Positions 2,088 through 14,902 of a stretch of DNA of 32,795 bases are shown piece after piece. Within the stretch, counting starts at the first letter, position 1; every line of letters starts with the position of its first letter. The notes under the pieces are model-generated. The model was not told where the DNA came from. It did not search any database and worked only from the letters and a program-made list of their open reading frames with translations. The DNA is from Candidatus Obscuribacter sp. GTDB taxonomy: Bacteria; Cyanobacteriota; Vampirovibrionia; Obscuribacterales; Obscuribacteraceae. The position numbers and the translations under genes were made by a program. The stretch is from positions 1 to 32,795 of the forward strand of contig JADYXQ010000277.1 in the NCBI GenBank assembly GCA_021772135.1, read 5' to 3'.

Positions 2088-4124
2088 TTATTTGATCAGG
2101 CCTTCTTCTCTCAGGAATTGGAGCACGTCAGCTGCTCGCGATTGCTGATCGCTTGTGCCGCTTTTGACATATTGCTCAAGTTTTGCCACGGCTTGCGGCA
2201 GTATTGCTGTGTCTACATAATTTTGGCGGGCCACATAAATGTCGTGATCAACACTCTTATTTTCAGCCGGCACGGTATCAAGTGATTTTTTCAAAGCGCG
2301 CATCCAAATTACAGTTCTGATTGGCATGTGTTCAGCCGCATCAACAAAAGCTTTGGCGTCATTGCCGAGCGTGCGTTCTCCCAACACCGCCCACTGCTCT
2401 CCGTTGTTGCGATCGGCGTATTTGCTCAGGCTGTACTCTTTTGCTTCAAGATTAATGGCATCAGCAAAACGCCAGGTGAGATTGTGGTCCCAATATTGGT
2501 AGCGCAATTCATGGGACCATTCATGCAAAACGTCGCGTCGCAAATAATTAGTGCGTTCTGTTTTATACATATTCAATTCGCCGTCGGTCATGGACATGGC
2601 TGAGACGAAGTCTTTGTTGTAGCCGCCCTGGCTAACCCAGGCGTCTTCAGGATTGCGTTTGTCTGAAATAAAGATACGCTTGAAGTAGCCGCTATTGGGC
2701 ATGGCATCTAGAAGCGGTGGCAGATCGGCAGGGCCCACTCTTTTGCTGAAATCTTCGACACCTTCTGTGGTGGTGGTAGATTTTTTGGCCGCCGCGTCGT
2801 CCAATTTTTCAGCATAGCGCGTTGGTAAAACTACTTCTACTGTGTGTTTATCAATGCTGTACGTGCGCACATCGGTGGGCACTTTGGCGATGCCGCGATT
2901 GTAAAAATCGTCGAAGTTATTGAAGGGCCCTTCAACCTCACTACGTTCGTTCAGCTTTTCTACAGCGGTTTTATAACCTGTTACTCGGGCAGGTTGTTGG
3001 GCGAGAGAGCGCTCCGGTATGGTCAACTCGCGTATTGTTTGATGAGGCCCTTCAAGCGGACCGATGAAAGTCTTACGCTCTTTATTCAGTTCAATCTGGG
3101 CGATGGCGGCAGCGAAGTCGGGAGTTTTATCGACTTGAACAAACCGTGTCACCGTGTCGTTTTCGCCCACGATATTGACGTGGCTGCTATTTTTCGAACG
3201 GGCGAATGTACTGTGCACTTCACCGGGCTCACCCAGCGGATCAATTACTCTGGAGTTGACACTTTTGTCGCTTTCACTCTGGCGATTTATTGATCTGGCT
3301 CGCATTCCACCTGGCGCGCCGGCCAGAGCGTCGATGCCGCCCTGTATAAGTGAGCGTCCAATGATTTTGCCCAGGTCAAACTTCTCGTTTGAATCTTGCT
3401 GCCGAATAATTTCTGCACTGGCACCATTTGATAAGCCAAAGCTGGCGCTGGTTGCCATTGTTTGAGCGACTACGCTGCGTTCAAAGAGCTGTGGGCTCAG
3501 CCTGGCTGCGCCTTTAAACAATGCGTGGGCGGCCACAAAAGTGGCTGCGTCACTAACAAGGGCGGTAGGATTAACCACCTCGTGAGCAAACTTGCCACCA
3601 AATGCGGCACCACTGATATTTCCTTTGCCGCCCAAATAACTTTGCCGGGTCAATACTGTCTCTAGTGCGCGATTGGAGAAACCAAAAGCCACACCTTTCA
3701 AAGCTGCCGAGTTGGCGACCATTTCAGGAACGTGTTTACTGCCCATGCCGTGCATAATGCCGCGCAAGCCTGCGCCTTTAAAGCCACCCAGAGCCAGGTC
3801 CGCCATTTGAGCGCCGCCTGTTGAGTTGGGAGAGGCATGATCGAGGGCTCCCAACACAACGGTACTGGCCAGACCAATTTTGCCGGGCATGAACAAAGCG
3901 GCGGTCATGAGAAAGCCAGAACCGTAGCGACCTACTTCTGACTGCACATTTTTATTGCTGGTAAAAACCGAAGCAACTTCTTTGACCGCCAGCTGAACAT
4001 AGCCCTGACCGGCTTCAGAGCTCAGCGCAAGTCGGCTTGAAGACTCGCTCAGGAGGTCAGCGGACTCATTTATTTCAGCGATGCTTCTTTTTGGCAATGA
4101 TTCACTCGCCGCGCTGCCCGCCAC
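2088..4124 (-). CDS. Unrecognised 678-aa protein with HExxH metalloprotease motif and Ala/Gly-rich N-terminal half
   Basis: I do not recognise the family. The first ~280 residues are rich in Ala, Gly and Ser and hold several weakly hydrophobic helices (for example around 70-90 and 190-210), without a classical signal peptide. The middle is polar. The C-terminal third holds LHEWSHELRY, giving HExxH with H534, E535 and H538. A downstream Glu (E576, in NNGEQWAVLGE) is placed like the third zinc ligand of gluzincin-type metallopeptidases. This suggests a zinc-dependent protease, possibly of the kind found as effector or toxin domains; that is inference. The start is a GTG, and an in-frame TAG lies two codons upstream, so the N-terminus cannot extend further. 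No Shine-Dalgarno is visible. A hairpin at 4168-4185 separates it from the upstream gene, so it is probably transcribed on its own. Confidence 0.75.
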   Translation of the reverse strand: MAGSAASESLPKRSIAEINESADLLSESSSRLALSSEAGQGYVQLAVKEVASVFTSNKNVQSEVGRYGSGFLMTAALFMPGKIGLASTVVLGALDHASPNSTGGAQMADLALGGFKGAGLRGIMHGMGSKHVPEMVANSAALKGVAFGFSNRALETVLTRQSYLGGKGNISGAAFGGKFAHEVVNPTALVSDAATFVAAHALFKGAARLSPQLFERSVVAQTMATSASFGLSNGASAEIIRQQDSNEKFDLGKIIGRSLIQGGIDALAGAPGGMRARSINRQSESDKSVNSRVIDPLGEPGEVHSTFARSKNSSHVNIVGENDTVTRFVQVDKTPDFAAAIAQIELNKERKTFIGPLEGPHQTIRELTIPERSLAQQPARVTGYKTAVEKLNERSEVEGPFNNFDDFYNRGIAKVPTDVRTYSIDKHTVEVVLPTRYAEKLDDAAAKKSTTTTEGVEDFSKRVGPADLPPLLDAMPNSGYFKRIFISDKRNPEDAWVSQGGYNKDFVSAMSMTDGELNMYKTERTNYLRRDVLHEWSHELRYQYWDHNLTWRFADAINLEAKEYSLSKYADRNNGEQWAVLGERTLGNDAKAFVDAAEHMPIRTVIWMRALKKSLDTVPAENKSVDHDIYVARQNYVDTAILPQAVAKLEQYVKSGTSDQQSRAADVLQFLREEGLIK

Positions 4125-4197: not shown

Positions 4198-5334
4198 TTA
4201 AGGCGCGGTTTTTTTCAGCAGGGAGGGATGCTGGGCTATGTGGGCCACGATTCTATGAATCAGTTCGATGCCGCCTTTTTCATTTAAGTGCCAGTCGTCC
4301 ATAAAATTGGCTGTTTGCGATAAAGTCGGATCGAATTCAAGGTCTAAAACGTCGGCCAGTGAACTTTTTTCGATTTCTCGCAAGAAGGCGCTATAGTCGG
4401 CCTGCAGTGCCGGTTGAATTTCGGAGGTTATCACTTTTGGTAGCGGCATGCTCACAATCAAAACTTTAACGCCGCGGTTAGAAGCACTGCGCAGCAGTTC
4501 TTTGAGAGATTTTTTCTGATTATTGTAGAGCCGCATTTTAACTTTCATGCTTGTATCTTTGGTTTTTTCAGTTAGTGTGCTTTTCAGTTTGGCCACGCCG
4601 GGCGCAAAGGCATTTTGCGGAGTGGCAAAAGTTGCGGCTTTTTCTGTTTCTTTCTTCTGGGGGCTCAAGCGATCTTGCAGGGTAGTTGATACTTGTTGCT
4701 GAAAGCGAGTAGAGCCACGCCGCATTGGCGTCAGCTGCGTCACGGCGCCATCGAACCAATCGAGGTCGTCTGCAGAATAAAGTTGTCCGTTGCGAAAATA
4801 GTGTGCCGGTTGCGACAACAATTTATAAACCGGTGTCGATTTAGCTGATTGAAACCAGTTGGTAAAAAATTCTCGCGGCGTAATAGCACAAATAAGAAGC
4901 CTGGGAGGATTTTTTGCCAAGAGCTGATCGAAAAGCAAAAGCATGTCTGAAACGTAGACACCATCGATGCCCATGTTGTATCCGACCAAATTTATGCCGG
5001 CGGCTTTGAGTTCTTTTTCAAAGAACTTTGTTTTGTGATAGTTCGAGTAAAAGATATTTTTGTCGAGAGTGTGGTCGGCGCACCACATGGGCGAGCGAAT
5101 CATAGACGAGCCCAAAAAGACTACATCGGCAGGAGTAGCCAGACGGGAATAGCCGCTGGTAGCAGTGTGTGCCTCTTCAATCCAGATGTCGTTTGCTTCG
5201 GGCTCATTGTGATAGAAAAAAGTGACAAAAAAATTGCAAAGATAAAAGATGAGGAAAGCCACCAAGAAACTGCTCAGCGCAATTTTAATGCCTTGCTTCA
5301 AGCCTGCATTTTTAGGTGGGGTACTGGTTAGCAT
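4198..5334 (-). CDS. Membrane-anchored SGNH-hydrolase-like protein (paralogue 1)
   Basis: 378 residues. One N-terminal transmembrane helix (~17-41) anchors a large extracytoplasmic domain. The domain starts with VVFLGSSM (GSS at 75-77), the degenerate GDS block holding the nucleophile Ser of SGNH hydrolases. It ends with DDWHLNEKGG (D346, H349), the DxxH block with the other two catalytic residues. The same layout, including a central PREF and a later SMPLP motif, recurs in the genes at 7593 and 12002, so the three are paralogues. SGNH proteins of the DltD/AlgX type work with MBOAT proteins to O-acylate cell-surface polymers; the MBOAT here is 3.5 kb away. The substrate is unknown. The ATG start has no clear Shine-Dalgarno site. 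It appears to be monocistronic. Confidence 0.8.
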   Translation of the reverse strand: MLTSTPPKNAGLKQGIKIALSSFLVAFLIFYLCNFFVTFFYHNEPEANDIWIEEAHTATSGYSRLATPADVVFLGSSMIRSPMWCADHTLDKNIFYSNYHKTKFFEKELKAAGINLVGYNMGIDGVYVSDMLLLFDQLLAKNPPRLLICAITPREFFTNWFQSAKSTPVYKLLSQPAHYFRNGQLYSADDLDWFDGAVTQLTPMRRGSTRFQQQVSTTLQDRLSPQKKETEKAATFATPQNAFAPGVAKLKSTLTEKTKDTSMKVKMRLYNNQKKSLKELLRSASNRGVKVLIVSMPLPKVITSEIQPALQADYSAFLREIEKSSLADVLDLEFDPTLSQTANFMDDWHLNEKGGIELIHRIVAHIAQHPSLLKKTAP

Positions 5335-7592: not shown

Positions 7593-8810
7593 CTATTTTG
7601 TGTTGCCTGCTTTTTCAATAACAGCGGCTGTCTGCTGATCTTGCTTCAGCCTGTCAGCCAACACCTCAAAGAAATGTTGCCCGCCGCGGCCGTTTAAGTG
7701 CACAGAGTCGGTGAAATATTTCTGGGGAAATAAGGTCGGATCATTGAGATCCAAAAATAAAGCCTGATGTTTTTTGACGATGCCGTTTACCTGTTCAAGG
7801 TAACTTTGATAAAAGCCCGCCGGCATGAGCGCCACGTTGTCTGTGGTCAGTGGCATATTGATGATCACCACGCGCGTGTCGTCGTCTTCAGCCATGGCCA
7901 GCAGCCGCTCTAGAAATGCCAATTGGCTGTTGAATTGTTTCAAATTCAATTTGCGATATCTAAATTTGTATTCTTCCAGATTGGCTTTGTATGGTTCGGC
8001 AATTACCGGCGGCGGTGTGACAAAAAGTGAGGTAGGGCCGAAGTCTTCGGGCAATTCTAAAAAGGCTTGTTTGCGCACGTGCAGCGGAGAGCGCACTTGA
8101 TCGAGCTCCTCATAACCAAGCAGCTTGCGAAATAATTCTTTGGCCCAGCGGTGTTGCACATAGAGAAAATCAGGTCGATGCCTGTAGGTAAAACTAACTT
8201 TGCTCAGACGCTTTTCGCCTTGTTCCCAGGGAGAACCCGCTGACTCTTTATCAATTTCGCTGAGGTCACCGACGCGGTCCATATATTTGAATATTTCGGT
8301 GCTCGATGCCGACGGCAGGGCGCTATCCATAAAATCACGCGGAGCGATACCGTAGATTATTACTTTTGGTTTGCGATCGTCTTTCAACAATGTGTGGGCA
8401 ATCACATAAGCATCTGAAACCATTTCGCCACCCAGAGCAAAGGCGAAAGTACGGTAAGTACGGCCGAATTTTTCTTTTAAAAGATCTTCCAGCAATTGAC
8501 TATGATGATGAAAGGCTACATTTTGAGGCAAGTTTAAGTGGGCGGCGTCACCGCCATGAAGTGGTGCCATCATTAACGATGATCCCAGTAGCACTATATC
8601 CGGTGCGCTCTTGAGTTCATTGAAATCTCTAACATTCCACCACACCCAGCTGCGGTTTGCTGCCTTGAATGGGCTCAGTGAAAGCACTTGAGGCGCATAT
8701 TGAGTTAAGAGTCGGCCGCCCAGGTCGATAGACAGCAAAAGCAAGGCGGCGCAGATGGCATAACTGCTCATCAACACTTTTAGCTTGTTGGGTGCTTTTT
8801 CGCCTTGCAT
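7593..8810 (-). CDS. Membrane-anchored SGNH-hydrolase-like protein (paralogue 2), MBOAT partner
   Basis: 405 residues. One N-terminal transmembrane helix (~14-33) precedes IVLLGSSLM (GSS at 76-78), and the C-terminal block is DSVHLNGRGG (D368, H371), giving an SGNH Ser-Asp-His set. Central APRDF and INMPL motifs match the paralogues at 4198 and 12002. The start ATG overlaps the stop of the upstream MBOAT gene by one base (TGATG), so the two are translationally coupled. The pairing mirrors DltB/DltD and AlgI/AlgX-AlgJ, where the MBOAT moves an acyl group across the membrane and the SGNH protein places it on the polymer. The acceptor (exopolysaccharide, teichoic-acid-like polymer or other) cannot be read from the sequence. 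Confidence 0.85.
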   Translation of the reverse strand: MQGEKAPNKLKVLMSSYAICAALLLLSIDLGGRLLTQYAPQVLSLSPFKAANRSWVWWNVRDFNELKSAPDIVLLGSSLMMAPLHGGDAAHLNLPQNVAFHHHSQLLEDLLKEKFGRTYRTFAFALGGEMVSDAYVIAHTLLKDDRKPKVIIYGIAPRDFMDSALPSASSTEIFKYMDRVGDLSEIDKESAGSPWEQGEKRLSKVSFTYRHRPDFLYVQHRWAKELFRKLLGYEELDQVRSPLHVRKQAFLELPEDFGPTSLFVTPPPVIAEPYKANLEEYKFRYRKLNLKQFNSQLAFLERLLAMAEDDDTRVVIINMPLTTDNVALMPAGFYQSYLEQVNGIVKKHQALFLDLNDPTLFPQKYFTDSVHLNGRGGQHFFEVLADRLKQDQQTAAVIEKAGNTK

Positions 8811-10285
8811 CAGAATTGAAAGTAAATAAAACGGGGAGACTTATCGGGGGAGAAAACAATAACGAGAAACATCATGGCGCAGCACCAGATCACCTTTGCT
8901 GTTTTCGGTGTGCGTTCAATGATAGTGGTGGTATTGAGCCAACCCATAGCCACATGAGCTATGGCCAGCACCGGCAACAATAAAAATATTGCCGGATAAA
9001 TCAAAGGAAAATTGATGGTGGGCAATACCATGGCCAGGGTCTTGAGCGGGCCGGGGGCCTGTCCCAGGGCTAACTCTGTGGCCGGGGTAAAAGTGAGCAT
9101 TCTGCCAATCATTGATAGAGCCAGGGCATTTGTTTCGGCGCGGAAAAATACCCAACCGATGCAGACCACATGGAATGTCAAAATAACCGATGCAATTTTT
9201 CCTGCTTTTGAATCAATTGCATTTTTCAGCCAGCTGATTTTTGCTTTTACATTTTGAAATTCTTTGTGTGCCACCAGAAGCACACCCTGGTAAAGCCCCC
9301 AGAGCAAATAGTGCATGGCGGCACCGTGCCACAATCCGCCCAGGGTCATAGTGATAATCAAATTGCGATAATTGAGCCATTTGCTGACGCGCGAGCCGCC
9401 TAATGGAATAAACAAATAGTCTCGCAACCAGGTGGAAAGCGAGATGTGCCAGCGGCGCCAGAAGTCTGAAATATTGCAGGCCAGGTAAGGCAGATTAAAA
9501 TTGATTGGTACTTTATAGCCAAACAAATTTGCCGATCCCCGGGCTATGTCGGTGTAGCCCGAGAAATCAAAATAGATTTGAAAAGCAAAAGCGTATGCGA
9601 AAATCCAGAGATCCAGGCCGGAGAACAAGTGCGGCTGAGAGAATCCGCCCTGGACAAAAAAGCTGAGATTGTCTGCAATCAATACTTTTTTAAAAAGGCC
9701 AAGCAAAATAAGGGAGATGGCACTGTCGAATATTGCAACAGATAATTGTGCCGGAGCGAGAAACTGCGGAATGAAATCTTGAAAGCGTTTAATAGGGCCG
9801 GCAATTTGCGTGGGAAAAAACGAGGCAAAAAGTGCGAAGGCTGAAAGTGACTTGATTGGTTCACTGCCGCGGTAAACGTCAACCACATAATGGATAAATT
9901 CAAAAACGAAAAAGGAAATGCCCAGTGGCAGAATAATTTCAAAGGGTAGCGACAGTTGTGGCAGGCCCGCCGGCTTCAAGCATTGACTGACTGTTTCAGT
10001 GAGGAAATAAGCGTATTTGAAATAAGCCAGAGTACCAAGATTGAGAACTACGGCCAGTGCCAACCAGTGTTTTTTCCTTTTTCCTGATTTGTGAATGGCA
10101 AAACCGAGGTAATAATTCACCAGGGTAAGGCCAATAATAAGAAGAATAAATACCGGTCGCCAGCTCATGTAAAAGACGTAACTGGCGATGAGCAGAATCC
10201 AGACTCGCCACTTTTGTGGGCAAAGCCAGAAAAGTGCAAAGACAATTGGTAAAAAGAGAGCGTATTTAAAAGAATTGAACAGCAT
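8810..10285 (-). CDS. Membrane-bound O-acyltransferase (MBOAT), AlgI/DltB type
   Basis: 491 residues, the usual AlgI length, with about ten hydrophobic segments. The N-terminus MLFNSFKYALFLPIVFALFW is typical of the family. The signature FWRRWHISLSTWLRDYLFIP is at 275-294 with H280, and the essential His of the family is in LGGLWHGAAMH (H320). AlgI-type MBOATs acylate, usually acetylate, extracellular polysaccharides at the cytoplasmic membrane. It is first in a two-gene unit with the SGNH gene at 7593, sharing one base. The ATG has no Shine-Dalgarno within the preceding 20 bases, but the N-terminal homology fixes the start. A TATAAT at 10393-10398 about 110 bases upstream may be its -10 box. 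Confidence 0.93.
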   Translation of the reverse strand: MLFNSFKYALFLPIVFALFWLCPQKWRVWILLIASYVFYMSWRPVFILLIIGLTLVNYYLGFAIHKSGKRKKHWLALAVVLNLGTLAYFKYAYFLTETVSQCLKPAGLPQLSLPFEIILPLGISFFVFEFIHYVVDVYRGSEPIKSLSAFALFASFFPTQIAGPIKRFQDFIPQFLAPAQLSVAIFDSAISLILLGLFKKVLIADNLSFFVQGGFSQPHLFSGLDLWIFAYAFAFQIYFDFSGYTDIARGSANLFGYKVPINFNLPYLACNISDFWRRWHISLSTWLRDYLFIPLGGSRVSKWLNYRNLIITMTLGGLWHGAAMHYLLWGLYQGVLLVAHKEFQNVKAKISWLKNAIDSKAGKIASVILTFHVVCIGWVFFRAETNALALSMIGRMLTFTPATELALGQAPGPLKTLAMVLPTINFPLIYPAIFLLLPVLAIAHVAMGWLNTTTIIERTPKTAKVIWCCAMMFLVIVFSPDKSPRFIYFQF

Positions 10286-12001: not shown

Positions 12002-13330
12002 TTGGCAATTGCTGTCGAGGGTCCGTTGGCTTCAGTTTCAACAGTGTCAGTTAGCGAAACAGTTAAAACAAAGGCAAAAGTTAGCGCCTTTGCGCTGGCT
12101 GTGGTTTTGTTCGCCGTCATTAATGGTGCTCTGGTTGCCGCCCAGCCTCTTGCTCCTCTAAACCCAGACCGCGTTCCGGCCAGACCCAGTTGGGAAAGTC
12201 ATCGCACGCAAGATTTTCAGGCTACCCCCTCTGCACCAGATGTGGTGCTATTGGGATCGTCACTGATGATGATTCCGACTGCTTGTTGCGACGCTGATTT
12301 TCTCAAAGTCACTATCGATCCTGTGGTGCATCCATATTCGAAATATTTGCAGGCAAAAATCGCTGAGAAATCTGGTAAACAACTGCAGTGTTTTAATTTC
12401 GCTTTGCCCGGCGGCATGATTTCCGATCACTTTATGGTTGTAAGCTCGTTGGTTTCGCCAGAGCGCAAACCCAAGCTGCTGATATTCGGATTGTCTTTGC
12501 GTGACTTTATTGATTCAGGCGTTGAGTGCGCTGCCGCTACCCCTGCTTATCACTATTTCTCGCGCTATAAAAGTGACCGAGAAATCGAAGCGATGTTGCC
12601 TCTATCTATGCCGAGCCTGCTCAACCGCGGTGAGTATCTGGTAGACAAGTATATTTATCTATTCGGCAAGAGACTGCAGATGCAAGTACTTACCGCCTAT
12701 GCTATGCAAAATCAGGCGGCGCGCCTGCTTGCTTCTTATCCGGTCAAGAAACTCAGTGAAGATACCAGCACCGCCGCCAGTGCTAATCCTGATGCGGCTT
12801 TAACCGGTGGCGAAGTGCTTAAGGGCATGGTGGCTTTACAGCCTGATGCTTTTTATCCGTGGCAGGACAACAGTCGCGAGTACAAAAAGCGTTTCAAAGG
12901 CAAAAATGACGGGCTCTTCAAAATTCAGCAAGAGTACATGAACAAGACTTTGAGCCAGCTGCAAGAGCAAGGGATCGAAGTTTTACTTGTAAACATGCCG
13001 CTCACCGAAGCGAATATGAAGCTTATGCCTGAAGGTTCATATCAGAAATATTTGCAAGTACTGGCACAAGAGGCAGAAAAATATGGCTGTGCTTTGCTTG
13101 ATCTCAATGATCAGAAAACATTTGTAACGGCCAATTTCAAAGATCCTGTGCATATGAACGGCTCTGGCGGAAAGGTGCTTATCGATCGCATCGCTGCTAA
13201 ATTAGGTAGCACACCTTCCGCCAGATCGGGTGACCCGAGCGTGACTGCGCCTGCTTCGAGACCATCTATCCTGGCCGCCATCACAGGCAACAAACAGATT
13301 GCCGTCAGTAAAAATCTGAGCAATCAATAG
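12002..13330 (+). CDS. Membrane-anchored SGNH-hydrolase-like protein (paralogue 3)
   Basis: 442 residues. A transmembrane helix at ~27-48 is followed by VVLLGSSLMM (GSS at 85-87). The C-terminal block is DPVHMNGSGG (D381, H384). Central LRDF and VNMPL...MPEGSYQKYLQ match the paralogue at 7593 closely (NMPL...MPAGFYQSYLEQ), more closely than the one at 4198. Unlike paralogue 2 it has no MBOAT neighbour, so it may share the MBOAT at 8810 or another elsewhere. A Ser/Ala-rich tail of ~45 residues follows the SGNH domain. The start is uncertain: TTG at 12002 has no Shine-Dalgarno, and a GTG at codon 15 is an alternative. It converges on aspS with a 20-bp gap. Confidence 0.8.
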   Translation: MAIAVEGPLASVSTVSVSETVKTKAKVSAFALAVVLFAVINGALVAAQPLAPLNPDRVPARPSWESHRTQDFQATPSAPDVVLLGSSLMMIPTACCDADFLKVTIDPVVHPYSKYLQAKIAEKSGKQLQCFNFALPGGMISDHFMVVSSLVSPERKPKLLIFGLSLRDFIDSGVECAAATPAYHYFSRYKSDREIEAMLPLSMPSLLNRGEYLVDKYIYLFGKRLQMQVLTAYAMQNQAARLLASYPVKKLSEDTSTAASANPDAALTGGEVLKGMVALQPDAFYPWQDNSREYKKRFKGKNDGLFKIQQEYMNKTLSQLQEQGIEVLLVNMPLTEANMKLMPEGSYQKYLQVLAQEAEKYGCALLDLNDQKTFVTANFKDPVHMNGSGGKVLIDRIAAKLGSTPSARSGDPSVTAPASRPSILAAITGNKQIAVSKNLSNQ

Positions 13331-13350: not shown

Positions 13351-14676
13351 TCACGGCGAAATGCGGTTGATGTCTCGGGGAAACAGCGCGGTCTGTTTTA
13401 CTGAAGGTAAACCAAGCAGTTGTTTTGCCAGACGCTCGAGCCCGATGGCCAGCCCACCGTGAGGGGGCATGCCGTGTTTGAAGCAGAGCAGGTAGTCGCC
13501 GAACTCTTCAGGGTTGAGACCACGGCTGGAGATAGACTCTTTTAATGCCTCATATTGATGAATGCGCTGACCACCAGTAGTGATTTCTAGCCCACGGAAG
13601 AGCAAGTCGAAACTTTTCGAGCCGGCCTTGCCGCTCTCCAGCGGTGCACCAGGCATGGCATAGAAAGGCCTGATGGCATGCGGATAGTCGGTGACATAAA
13701 CGAGATCGCTGCCTTCTGTTTTTTCAAAGTGATTGCAGAGAAGCTTTTCACCTTCACCGTCGAGGTCTGCCGATTCGCTCACCCAGCCGTATTGGCTCGA
13801 CAAAAGTTGCTGCGCTTCCGTTAATCGGATCTGTGGAATGGTGGCACCAATATGCGGCAATATTGCCTCGTACATTGCCAGTTCGCGAGTGCAGTGTTCT
13901 TGCAAATGTGCCACGATTGCCCGCAGCAGGCCCACTTGCATGGCGATTACGTCTTGCTCGCTTTCGATAAAACCCATTTCAAAGTCGAGGCTAATATATT
14001 CGTTTAGATGCCTGGTGGTGTCATGCTCTTCAGCACGGTAAACCGGACCGACTTCGAAGACGCGTTCAAATGCACCGACCATAATTTGTTTGTAGAACTG
14101 CGGGCTCTGAGCCAGGTAAGCGGTTCTGCCGAAATAGTCGATTTTAAATAGCTGTGCGCCGCCTTCTGTGCCGGTGGCGACAATTTTAGGTGAGTGAATT
14201 TCGACAAAATTTTGGTTGTTCAAATATTGACGATAGGCTTTGAGAATTTCGGCTTCAATCTTAAAGATGGCTCTGACTTTTTCGTTGCGCAAAGTCAGCG
14301 GTCGATAGTCCAGCAGTGTGGAGACACCCAAATTGTCTATCTTGCTGTCTTTGCCGATTTCTACCGGGGGCGCGTGCGTCACTGCACTCAATGGCTCTAT
14401 TTCTGTAAGCAATAATTCGGTGCGCTGTTGTTGACCGTTCTTTGGCGGCGGAGACTTCAATGTGCCGGTAAAAATGCAAGGAGTTTCGCTTGCCAGTGCT
14501 CTAATGCGAGTCTGCAAATCTGCCTTGTCTACCACTACCTGGATGGTCGCACTGCCGTCGCGTACCACCAGAAACATGATCTGGCCAAGGTCGCGCATTG
14601 ATTGCAGGTGGCCTTGTATACGCACGGGTTGTTCCAAAAACCGTGCGGCCTGGGCCAGCTGGATAGTCGTAGACAT
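13351..14676 (-). CDS. aspS: Aspartyl-tRNA synthetase, archaeal/eukaryotic type (probably non-discriminating)
   Basis: 441 residues from the ATG at 14676, which has GGGGAG 7 bases upstream; a TTG ten codons earlier lies inside the attenuator hairpin and is rejected. An N-terminal OB-fold anticodon domain (~8-95) is followed by a class II core: QSPQFYKQ (190-197), motif 2 YRAEEHDTTRHLNEYISLDF (213-232) and motif 3 GGLAIGLERLAKQLLG, ending in FPRDINRISP. Standard bacterial AspRS is ~590 residues with a GAD insertion; this one lacks it, which marks the archaeal type. Bacterial enzymes of this type are often non-discriminating, also charging tRNAAsn with Asp for later amidation by GatCAB. The anticodon-loop-contacting region contains Gln25 and prolines 76-78; an alignment is needed to judge specificity. 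The upstream Asn-rich leader supports the non-discriminating reading. Confidence 0.95.
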   Translation of the reverse strand: MSTTIQLAQAARFLEQPVRIQGHLQSMRDLGQIMFLVVRDGSATIQVVVDKADLQTRIRALASETPCIFTGTLKSPPPKNGQQQRTELLLTEIEPLSAVTHAPPVEIGKDSKIDNLGVSTLLDYRPLTLRNEKVRAIFKIEAEILKAYRQYLNNQNFVEIHSPKIVATGTEGGAQLFKIDYFGRTAYLAQSPQFYKQIMVGAFERVFEVGPVYRAEEHDTTRHLNEYISLDFEMGFIESEQDVIAMQVGLLRAIVAHLQEHCTRELAMYEAILPHIGATIPQIRLTEAQQLLSSQYGWVSESADLDGEGEKLLCNHFEKTEGSDLVYVTDYPHAIRPFYAMPGAPLESGKAGSKSFDLLFRGLEITTGGQRIHQYEALKESISSRGLNPEEFGDYLLCFKHGMPPHGGLAIGLERLAKQLLGLPSVKQTALFPRDINRISP

Positions 14677-14696
14677 AAAATTTCTCCCCAAACGAA

Positions 14697-14725
14697 AAGA
14701 CCGCAACCTCTGGGGTTGCGGTCTT
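14697..14725 (-). terminator. Attenuator terminator hairpin in the aspS leader
   Basis: On the minus strand, AAGACCGCAACC (14725-14714), loop CCAGA and GGTTGCGGTCTT (14708-14697) make a perfect 12-bp GC-rich stem. It is followed by TTCGTTT, so the transcript has U4 across the stem end and then CGUUU. It ends 7 bases before the aspS ribosome binding site (14684-14689), inside the leader and not after a gene, which is the hallmark of an attenuator. Confidence 0.8.
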
Positions 14726-14776
14726 AGACTTGTTTACGTTGTGTTTTTTAACTACGTGACAGTCTGAGTGCAACCC
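14713..14776 (-). promoter_or_regulatory. Antiterminator pairing competing with the aspS terminator
   Basis: On the minus strand, GGGTTGC (14776-14770, in leader codons 21-23) is complementary to GCAACCC (14719-14713), most of the terminator's upstream arm. Just inside it, AGACT (14765-14761) is complementary to AGTCT (14730-14726). The two helices nest around a 4x6 internal loop, so this 12-bp fold and the terminator cannot coexist. A weak stem over codons 17-23 (CCT/AGG flanked by TGC/GCA) could mask GGGTTGC when no ribosome stalls. Pairings were found by eye; no energies were calculated. Confidence 0.75.
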
Positions 14777-14837
14777 TTAAAAGGAGGCAATCATTATTGT
14801 CATTATTATTATTATTATTAGCGCTGTAGTTAAACAT
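14748..14837 (-). CDS. Asn/Asp-rich leader peptide of the aspS attenuator
   Basis: 29 codons, ATG at 14837 to TAA at 14748, 71 bases upstream of aspS. The peptide starts M-F-N-Y-S-A, followed by six Asn (codons 7-12), Asp, Asn, Asn, Asp (13-16), then Cys and a Leu/Arg-rich end. Nine Asn and two Asp make up 11 of 29 residues. Eight of the nine Asn codons are AAT and one is AAC; both would be read by the same tRNA. The stop codon is 22 bases before the terminator's upstream arm. Stalling at codons 7-16 would leave the antiterminator strand at codons 21-26 free, as in trp, his and pheST leaders. No convincing Shine-Dalgarno precedes the ATG, which is the main weakness. The ATT-repeat look could also mean a chance microsatellite. 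Confidence 0.75.
   Translation of the reverse strand: MFNYSANNNNNNDNNDCLLLRVALRLSRS
14802..14820. repeat. (ATT)6 trinucleotide run
   Basis: Six ATT units plus one A on the plus strand, reading as six AAT (Asn) codons in the leader peptide on the minus strand. Slippage here would change the number of Asn codons without breaking the leader frame. Confidence 0.9.
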
Positions 14838-14873
14838 GATTTTTGTGGCTGCGGTTCAATTCGTAAGACCTTC

Positions 14874-14902
14874 ATGCTAATCACAAAAGCCCAGGCCGTC
14901 AA
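14874..14902 (-). promoter_or_regulatory. Sigma70-like promoter of the aspS leader
   Basis: The minus strand has TTGACG (14902-14897, five of six to TTGACA), a 17-bp spacer, and TAGCAT (14879-14874, four of six to TATAAT). A transcript would start near 14867, about 30 bases before the leader ATG. The spacing is optimal and it is the best promoter-like pair between the upstream hydrolase gene and aspS. Confidence 0.55.

What the first reader, a model, noticed from the sequence alone, without database searches (positions are those of the whole stretch)
14676..14902. Asn/Asp-codon leader peptide and attenuator controlling an aspartyl-tRNA synthetase
Seen in the sequence, minus strand: a TTGACG-17-TAGCAT promoter; a 29-codon frame with eight Asn and two Asp at codons 7-16; a perfect 12-bp GC-rich hairpin followed by a short U run, ending 7 bases before the aspS ribosome binding site; and an alternative 7+5-bp pairing between leader codons 21-26 and the hairpin's upstream arm. 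Known: trp, his and pheST operons use this logic, where a starved ribosome stalls and frees the antiterminator strand. Inference: low Asn-tRNAAsn raises AspRS expression. Sensing Asn to control AspRS makes physiological sense if the enzyme makes Asp-tRNAAsn for amidation. Asn-sensing ribosome attenuation of an AspRS gene is not something I know as described; most related control is by T-boxes in Firmicutes.
Basis: partly seen in the sequence, partly recalled or inferred. Interest (0 to 1): 0.93.

Follow-up and report, generated by a model that had tools for sequence, protein, structure and literature searches.

The report
Asparagine-sensing switch for tRNA charging
In front of the gene for an extra aspartate-tRNA synthetase, an uncultured relative of cyanobacteria carries, like 41 of the 42 other genomes of its order where this gene's upstream DNA could be read, a short asparagine- and aspartate-rich reading frame overlapping two predicted RNA pairings that exclude each other, which likely lets the gene be transcribed only when charged asparagine or aspartate tRNA runs short.

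Summary
The downstream gene is an archaeal-type AspRS2, 'aspartate--tRNA(Asn) ligase'. Of 53 Obscuribacterales genomes searched, 44 have AspRS2; 43 upstream regions are readable. In 42 of these (20 genera) an Asn/Asp codon run, a strand (S1) complementary to the terminator's 5' arm (S2), and a terminator hairpin precede the gene; G029 lacks them. S1 and S2 match as partners: one genome per genus, own pairing averages -20.1 kcal/mol, swapped -15.3, 0 of 20,000 permutations as good. A model of the leader hits at E < 1e-4 only at aspS2. No Rfam family matches, while some clostridial and chloroflexotal AspRS2 genes carry T-boxes. Best reading: ribosome-mediated transcription attenuation by charged tRNA-Asn and tRNA-Asp, switching on a second route to Asn-tRNA in a genome that also has AsnRS. 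Translation, termination, starvation response and tRNA-Asn charging by AspRS2 are untested; GatB was not found in several AspRS2 genomes. New specificity, gene and lineage of a known kind.

The parts
14874..14902 (-). sigma-70-like promoter TTGACG-17-TAGCAT (predicted)
   Evidence: consensus match only; TTGAC lies within 230 nt upstream of the codon run in 42 of 42 genomes, mononucleotide shuffles mean 8.3, highest 14 of 42
14748..14837 (-). 29-codon leader frame MFNYSANNNNNNDNNDCLLLRVALRLSRS with stop
14790..14819 (-). regulatory codon run, codons 7-16: 8 Asn, 2 Asp
   Evidence: run present in 42 of 43 readable genomes (G014 set by hand)
14761..14776 (-). S1, predicted antiterminator strand (GGGTTGC and AGACT), inside leader codons 21-26
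14713..14730 (-). S2, shared strand: can pair with S1 (antiterminator) or, from 14725 to 14714, with S3 (terminator)
14697..14725 (-). predicted intrinsic terminator hairpin, 12 bp, followed by TTCGTTT
14684..14689 (-). Shine-Dalgarno-like GGGGAG of aspS2
   Evidence: sequence
13351..14676 (-). aspS2, archaeal-type AspRS, aspartate--tRNA(Asn) ligase, 441 aa
   Evidence: NF003483 519.9 bits (cut-off 353), TIGR00458 389.6 bits (cut-off 368.4); closest solved chain is the AspRS2 1n9w

Best explanation
The leader between the predicted promoter and aspS2 holds an Asn/Asp-rich 29-codon frame, a strand S1 complementary to the 5' arm of a terminator-like hairpin, and that hairpin, parts found in 42 of 43 readable Obscuribacterales upstream regions of this gene, and it likely works as a ribosome-mediated transcription attenuator that would read charged tRNA-Asn together with charged tRNA-Asp. 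When both are plentiful, the ribosome would run through the codon run to the stop codon and cover S1, so S2 would pair with S3, the terminator would form and transcription would end before aspS2. When either is short, the ribosome would stall early in the run, leaving S1 free to pair with S2 as soon as S2 is made; the terminator would be blocked and AspRS2 made. AspRS2 is predicted to aspartylate tRNA-Asn, and GatCAB to amidate it to Asn-tRNA-Asn, giving a second route when direct charging by AsnRS fails. Shown: the parts, their conservation, the partner-specific complementarity, the gene family and the genome content. Inferred: promoter use, translation of the frame, termination, read-through, the tRNA specificity of AspRS2 and the physiology.
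For:: Asn/Asp codon run upstream of aspS2 in 42 of 43 readable genomes; 336 of 393 codons within the runs are Asn or Asp, only 2 are Lys or Glu; AAT/AAC and GAC/GAT both occur; only one frame is enriched (8.0 against 0.0 and 0.05); 0 of 1,680 shuffles reach 8 of 12; upstream regions of 44 AspRS2 genes of other lineages reach 2-6 of 12; own S1:S2 duplex -20.1 against permuted -15.3 (sd 0.72), 0 of 20,000 (one genome per genus, 20); several pair types at the variable positions of both helices. RNA made up to S2 folds S1:S2 in 42 of 42. S1 starts 23-50 nt after the first Asn/Asp codon (beyond an assumed +15 edge of a ribosome stalled there in 42 of 42), and a ribosome at the stop codon (assumed -15) overlaps S1 in 39 of 42; model R1 hits at E < 1e-4 only at aspS2, in 41 genomes; these hits are by construction, the absence of others is the result; gene family and genome content.
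Against: No experiment. In the full-length RNA the terminator is the minimum-energy state in 34 of 42 genomes, the window included, so antitermination would have to be kinetic. S1 begins only 0-14 nt after the last Asn/Asp codon, so a stall late in the run would cover it. That the terminator forms once S1 is covered (42 of 42) follows largely from how the test was made. S1:S2 is weak against shuffled S1 in G009 and G019 (46 and 40 of 300 shuffles as good), and only 2 of 41 pairs beat every swap in both directions. Asp codons are in every leader, so asparagine alone may not be the signal. No clear Shine-Dalgarno site precedes the window's leader ATG (sequence). G029 has AspRS2 without the element. 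GatB was not found in G002, G004, G006, G008, G010, G017, G027, G068 and G072, so amidation is unproved there. Anticodon-domain residues do not settle non-discrimination. Three terminators (G015, G031, G062) and the G014 run were set by hand after the scan missed them.
Confidence: 0.76

Rival explanations
1. The same attenuator, but AspRS2 is only a backup AspRS that charges tRNA-Asp; the leader reads shortage of the aspartate family as a whole and no Asp-tRNA-Asn is made.
For: Asp codons in all 42 leaders; GatB not found in several AspRS2 genomes; the genome also has AsnRS and AsnB; the proline discussed for non-discriminating enzymes (recalled) is not clearly kept.
Against: Asn codons outnumber Asp 231 to 105; both family models named aspartate--tRNA(Asn) ligase are passed and the bacterial-type AspRS is present besides; none of 43 proteins has Trp at the position of W26 of chain 1b8a (the rule is recalled); GlnRS, AsnRS and GatA coexist with AspRS2 in 22 of 31 AspRS2 genomes among G000-G035, 15 of them with GatB over cut-off too, where GatCAB has no other obvious use.
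Confidence: 0.16
2. Translational rather than transcriptional attenuation: the alternative pairings gate the aspS2 ribosome binding site.
For: The hairpin ends 7 nt before GGGGAG.
Against: Neither predicted pairing includes the binding site, and the hairpins are followed by T-rich tails.
Confidence: 0.04
3. A tRNA-binding riboswitch of T-box type, with no need for translation.
For: T-boxes precede some AspRS2 genes elsewhere.
Against: No Rfam match at gathering score in the window or in 12 Obscuribacterales loci; an in-frame run of Asn/Asp codons with synonymous change is unneeded by a T-box.
Confidence: 0.02
4. An AAT-repeat microsatellite beside an ordinary terminator of an upstream transcript, without regulatory meaning.
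For: AAT repeats arise by slippage; promoter and terminator scans alone are not above chance.
Against: Presence in 20 genera, Asn/Asp mixing with only 2 Lys/Glu codons in 393, and partner-specific S1/S2 complementarity.
Confidence: 0.02

Closest known systems
Ribosome-mediated transcription attenuators of amino-acid operons and synthetase genes (trp, his, leu, pheST; predicted trpS and leuS attenuators of Streptomyces, PMC1262725; hisS leader peptides replacing T-boxes, PMC2965389)
   Same: Short frame with codons of the sensed amino acid, exclusive antiterminator and terminator, synthetase gene downstream.
   Different: Asn/Asp codons, an AspRS2 gene, and the Obscuribacterales. The main texts of both papers hold the words asparagine, aspS and asnS 0 times (term counts and passages).
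[quoted passage not shown] only titles seen, in the reference list of PMC4206432; texts not held)
   Same: tRNA-charging control of the indirect Asn route, with gene and pathway redundancy (2012 title); the 2013 title speaks of two codons and two tRNAs. That the controlled genes include AspRS2 and GatCAB is recalled.
   Different: Direct tRNA binding by RNA, not a translating ribosome; no T-box match here.
Second AspRS of Thermus thermophilus and Deinococcus radiodurans with GatCAB (PMC4206432 and PMC6523644, passages)
   Same: Non-discriminating AspRS2 next to a bacterial-type AspRS, AsnRS and GlnRS.
   Different: The passages read mention no leader-peptide control.

Membership tests
Ribosome-mediated transcription attenuator | short frame with a run of regulatory codons upstream of the gene | tested here: met
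   42 of 43 readable genomes; translation itself not tested
Ribosome-mediated transcription attenuator | mutually exclusive antiterminator and intrinsic terminator, maintained by partner-specific complementarity | tested here: met
   in silico only
Ribosome-mediated transcription attenuator | stall site and stop codon placed so that the ribosome frees or covers the antiterminator strand | tested here: met
   42 of 42 for a stall at the first codon, 39 of 42 for the stop codon, with assumed ribosome edges of 15 nt; a stall at the last codons would cover S1
Ribosome-mediated transcription attenuator | promoter upstream of the leader | tested here: inconclusive
   TTGAC in 42 of 42, consensus scan not above chance
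Ribosome-mediated transcription attenuator | read-through rises when the sensed aminoacyl-tRNA is short | not testable with these tools
   needs a reporter or 3'-end sequencing
T-box riboswitch (RF00230) | match to the family covariance model | tested here: not met
   window and 12 Obscuribacterales loci at gathering score
AspRS2, aspartate--tRNA(Asn) ligase | family model over the curated cut-off | tested here: met
AspRS2, aspartate--tRNA(Asn) ligase | amidotransferase GatCAB in the same genome | tested here: inconclusive
   GatA and GatB over cut-off in the window's genome; of 31 AspRS2 genomes in G000-G035 GatA in 28, GatB in 23; GatC not tested
AspRS2, aspartate--tRNA(Asn) ligase | anticodon-binding residues of non-discriminating enzymes (recalled) | tested here: inconclusive
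   no Trp at position 26 in 43 proteins (Gln 24, His 10, Tyr 6, Glu 2, Leu 1); the proline position varies

The most novel reading that the evidence does not exclude
An Asn-starvation switch that reads two tRNAs through one ribosome: a leader frame mixing Asn and Asp codons turns on a second, tRNA-dependent way of making asparagine in cells that already own the direct one. It is the translation-based counterpart of the two-tRNA T-box of clostridia. A separate Asp-codon leader before AspRS2 in four Lachnospiraceae loci would mean that leader-peptide control of this enzyme arose at least twice.
Probability: 0.5. Interest if true: 0.86.

Novelty: new variant of a known kind. Interest (0 to 1): 0.74.

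Why it matters
If true, it adds asparagine (with aspartate) to the amino acids read by leader peptides and places such a switch in a lineage related to cyanobacteria. It would put the indirect Asn-tRNA route under tRNA-charging control by a device different from the clostridial T-box, and would make testable why many bacteria keep two routes to Asn-tRNA: here one may be kept silent until the other fails.

Tried and rejected
Seven of the listed ones were read: none shows an Asn/Asp run with S1, S2 and a terminator in front of a gene; L182 reads as Asn/Asp in one frame, but that stretch looks like the tail of a Thr-rich coding frame followed by its terminator. A short frame MNDNN.. upstream of the genes before gatB in G000 is not conserved in G003 or G001. 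The stretches upstream of AsnRS, bacterial AspRS and three AsnB genes of G000 hold no run of 8 or more of 12 (the upstream of gatA on contig C80 was not read apart from the model search). T-box: rejected. Non-discrimination from residues: inconclusive. tRNA-Asn has U1-A72 in 31 of 31 distinct genes read (32 reads, one gene twice) from 30 genomes, chosen as the best matches plus a second gene of G000; PMC9976931 (passages) names this pair as the amidation determinant, but I recall it in E. coli tRNA-Asn too, so it only permits amidation.

Literature: searches returned no paper; none of the papers listed showed, in what I saw (listings, and passages), leader-peptide attenuation of an Asn/AspRS gene by Asn/Asp codons. 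One search listed 12 of 404 papers and 15 of 40, so this is not a proof of absence; PMC5009743 holds 'asparagine codons' once and was not read. (passages): a Shewanella study tabulates aspS with 'tRNA synthetase leader', no mechanism in the passages. Subscription papers are mostly not held.

Full report
What is there. The window lies in a draft genome (G000, 333 contigs) whose nearest named relatives are Candidatus Obscuribacterales / Melainabacteria metagenome assemblies. On the minus strand the stretch 14902-14684 holds, in order, a sigma-70-like promoter, a 29-codon frame with NNNNNNDNND at codons 7-16, a strand S1 within codons 21-26, a 12-bp terminator-like hairpin whose 5' arm is part of S2, and the ribosome binding site of the next gene. 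The next gene, 441 aa from ATG 14676, passes the curated cut-offs of both NCBIfam models named aspartate--tRNA(Asn) ligase; the closest solved chain, 1n9w, is named a non-discriminating, archaeal-type AspRS2.

Conservation. One search covered 53 genomes of the order (n = 300 was asked for): 44 have AspRS2 at E <= 1e-60. G005's contig ends just upstream of the gene, so 43 upstream regions could be read. In 42 of them a short frame with a run of Asn/Asp codons precedes the gene. G029, whose AspRS2 is 45% identical, has none. The highest count of Asn/Asp codons in 12 is 5-11 (median 8) in the 42, against 2-6 in the upstream regions of 44 AspRS2 genes of other lineages; eight of the 42 (counts 5-6) overlap the top of these controls. 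Within the runs 231 codons are Asn, 105 Asp, 57 others, of which only 2 are Lys or Glu; both Asn and Asp occur in all 42; T and C alternate at third positions; the other two frames are not enriched. This points to selection on the encoded residues, not to a plain AAT repeat.

Covariation. In the 42 genomes the strand after the run (S1) can pair with the 5' arm of the terminator (S2). Across genera the arms change together: CTTGCGGT with ACCGCAAG, GCTGGTGG with CCACCAGC or CCGCCAGC, GCGGTTGTCG with CGACAACCGC, GGGTTGC with GCAACCC, GCGGTCGTC with GACGACCGC. Taking one genome per genus (20), own S1:S2 duplexes average -20.1 kcal/mol; permuting the partners gives -15.3 (sd 0.72) and none of 20,000 permutations is as good. 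In single genomes the test is weaker: only 2 of 41 distinct pairs beat every swap in both directions (sister species share sequences), and G009 and G019 are not clearly better than shuffled S1. The terminator helix also covaries (6 of 10 pairs with a change on both sides in at least one sequence); the pair types of S1:S2 come from the best duplex itself and are descriptive only. Three imperfect terminators and the G014 run were set by hand. S1 keeps to the codon run rather than to the stop codon: in genus g13 the stop codon lies inside S1.

How it would work. S1 starts 23-50 nt after the first Asn/Asp codon, beyond an assumed 15-nt reach of a ribosome stalled there, in 42 of 42, but only 0-14 nt after the last such codon; a ribosome at the stop codon (assumed 15 nt back) overlaps S1 in 39 of 42. 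Folding the RNA made up to S2 gives S1:S2 in 42 of 42; with the RNA up to 12 nt past the stop codon removed the terminator forms in 42 of 42, as expected once S1 is gone. In the complete RNA the terminator is the more stable state in 34 of 42, the window included, and the antiterminator in 8. The switch would therefore depend on S1:S2 forming before S3 is made. This is inference; no transcript or starvation data were at hand. The window's leader has no clear Shine-Dalgarno site, and in G002 and G004 the start codon lies about 9 nt after the -10 box (sequence, loci L009 and L041), so near-leaderless starts are possible.

One element, one gene. A covariance model of the leader (terminator pairs only) searched over the 53 genomes gives E < 1e-4 only at aspS2, in 41 genomes; these are sequences the model was built from, and the result is the absence of others. 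G014 is weak (1.38); G005 and G029 have no hit there. Seven weaker hits read are not such leaders. Other Asn/Asp genes of G000 have no such run.

Genome content. G000 also encodes, over curated cut-offs, AsnRS, a bacterial-type AspRS, GatB, GatA, GlnRS and three AsnB-type genes. Of 31 AspRS2 genomes in G000-G035, 26 have AsnRS, 25 GlnRS, 28 GatA and 23 GatB over cut-off; 22 have AspRS2, AsnRS, GlnRS and GatA together, 15 of them GatB as well (counted from the tables; draft genomes). PMC4206432 (passages) describes such redundancy for Thermus and Deinococcus, where the second AspRS with GatCAB makes asparagine on tRNA; PMC6523644 (passages) states that a non-discriminating AspRS is always accompanied by an amidotransferase. 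Against this, GatB was not found in G002, G004, G006, G008, G010, G017 and G027, nor in G068 and G072, although GatA is over cut-off in all of these but G008. Gaps in draft genomes are possible but not shown; if the loss is real, AspRS2 there would have to be a discriminating backup enzyme.

Compared with what is known. The logic is that of trp/his/pheST attenuators (recalled). Leader-peptide control of synthetase genes is predicted for trpS and leuS in Streptomyces (PMC1262725, passages) and for hisS with T-box/leader exchange (PMC2965389, passages). Elsewhere this gene can be under T-boxes: Rfam finds them in 4 of 17 clostridial-type loci and 2 of 20 other loci (both Chloroflexota) searched, and none in 12 Obscuribacterales loci or the window; seven of the 44 other-lineage loci were not searched. 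Saad 2012 and 2013 on the clostridial T-box were seen only as titles in a reference list. In the searches made I met no description of Asn/Asp leader-peptide attenuation (listings partly capped). Hence: a new specificity, gene and lineage of a known kind.

Lead. Four Lachnospiraceae loci (L051, L058, L075, L085) carry an unrelated short frame with ..LNRDDD.. (LHRDDD in L058) before AspRS2. In three of them (L051, L058, L085) the following strands can pair as 1:2, 2:3 and 3:4 before a terminator-like hairpin; in L075 the fold shows the 1:2 pairing and such a hairpin. It suggests a separately evolved Asp leader, but only these loci were seen and no control was run.

Noticed in passing
L051, L058, L075, L085 (upstream of the AspRS2 match at 3001); L068 similar: Lachnospiraceae AspRS2 genes preceded by a short frame with three Asp codons (..L(N/H)RDDD..) and strands that can pair in alternative ways before a terminator-like hairpin; L068 (Oscillospiraceae) has GAT AAT GAT shortly before a stop. 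Possibly an independent Asp-codon attenuator.
   Followed up: partly
L080 and L084, about 290-305 nt upstream of the AspRS2 match: GGGTGG(C/T)ACCGCGG, which I recall as the T-box antiterminator motif; these loci gave no Rfam match at gathering score.
   Followed up: no
G002, G004, G006, G010, G017, G027, G068, G072: GatA over cut-off but GatB not found, while congeners in g1, g13 and g23 have it; G066's GatB match holds one TAA. Draft gaps or real loss.
   Followed up: partly
G000:C97:10193-10779 (L208, L218): Cluster of tRNA genes with a second tRNA-Asn whose gene encodes CCA; possibly a mobile tRNA array.
   Followed up: no
window 4198-5334, 7593-8810, 12002-13330: Three proteins share a D(V/I)V(F/L)LGSS stretch; the third matches DUF1574 and, just below cut-off, DltD. 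8810-10285 looks like an MBOAT acyltransferase (recalled, untested). Perhaps a cell-surface acylation cluster.
   Followed up: no
G029:C4 (L143): The only readable AspRS2 of the order without the leader; divergent (45% identity), in a 71%-complete genome where no AsnRS passed the cut-off, so possibly a separate acquisition.
   Followed up: partly
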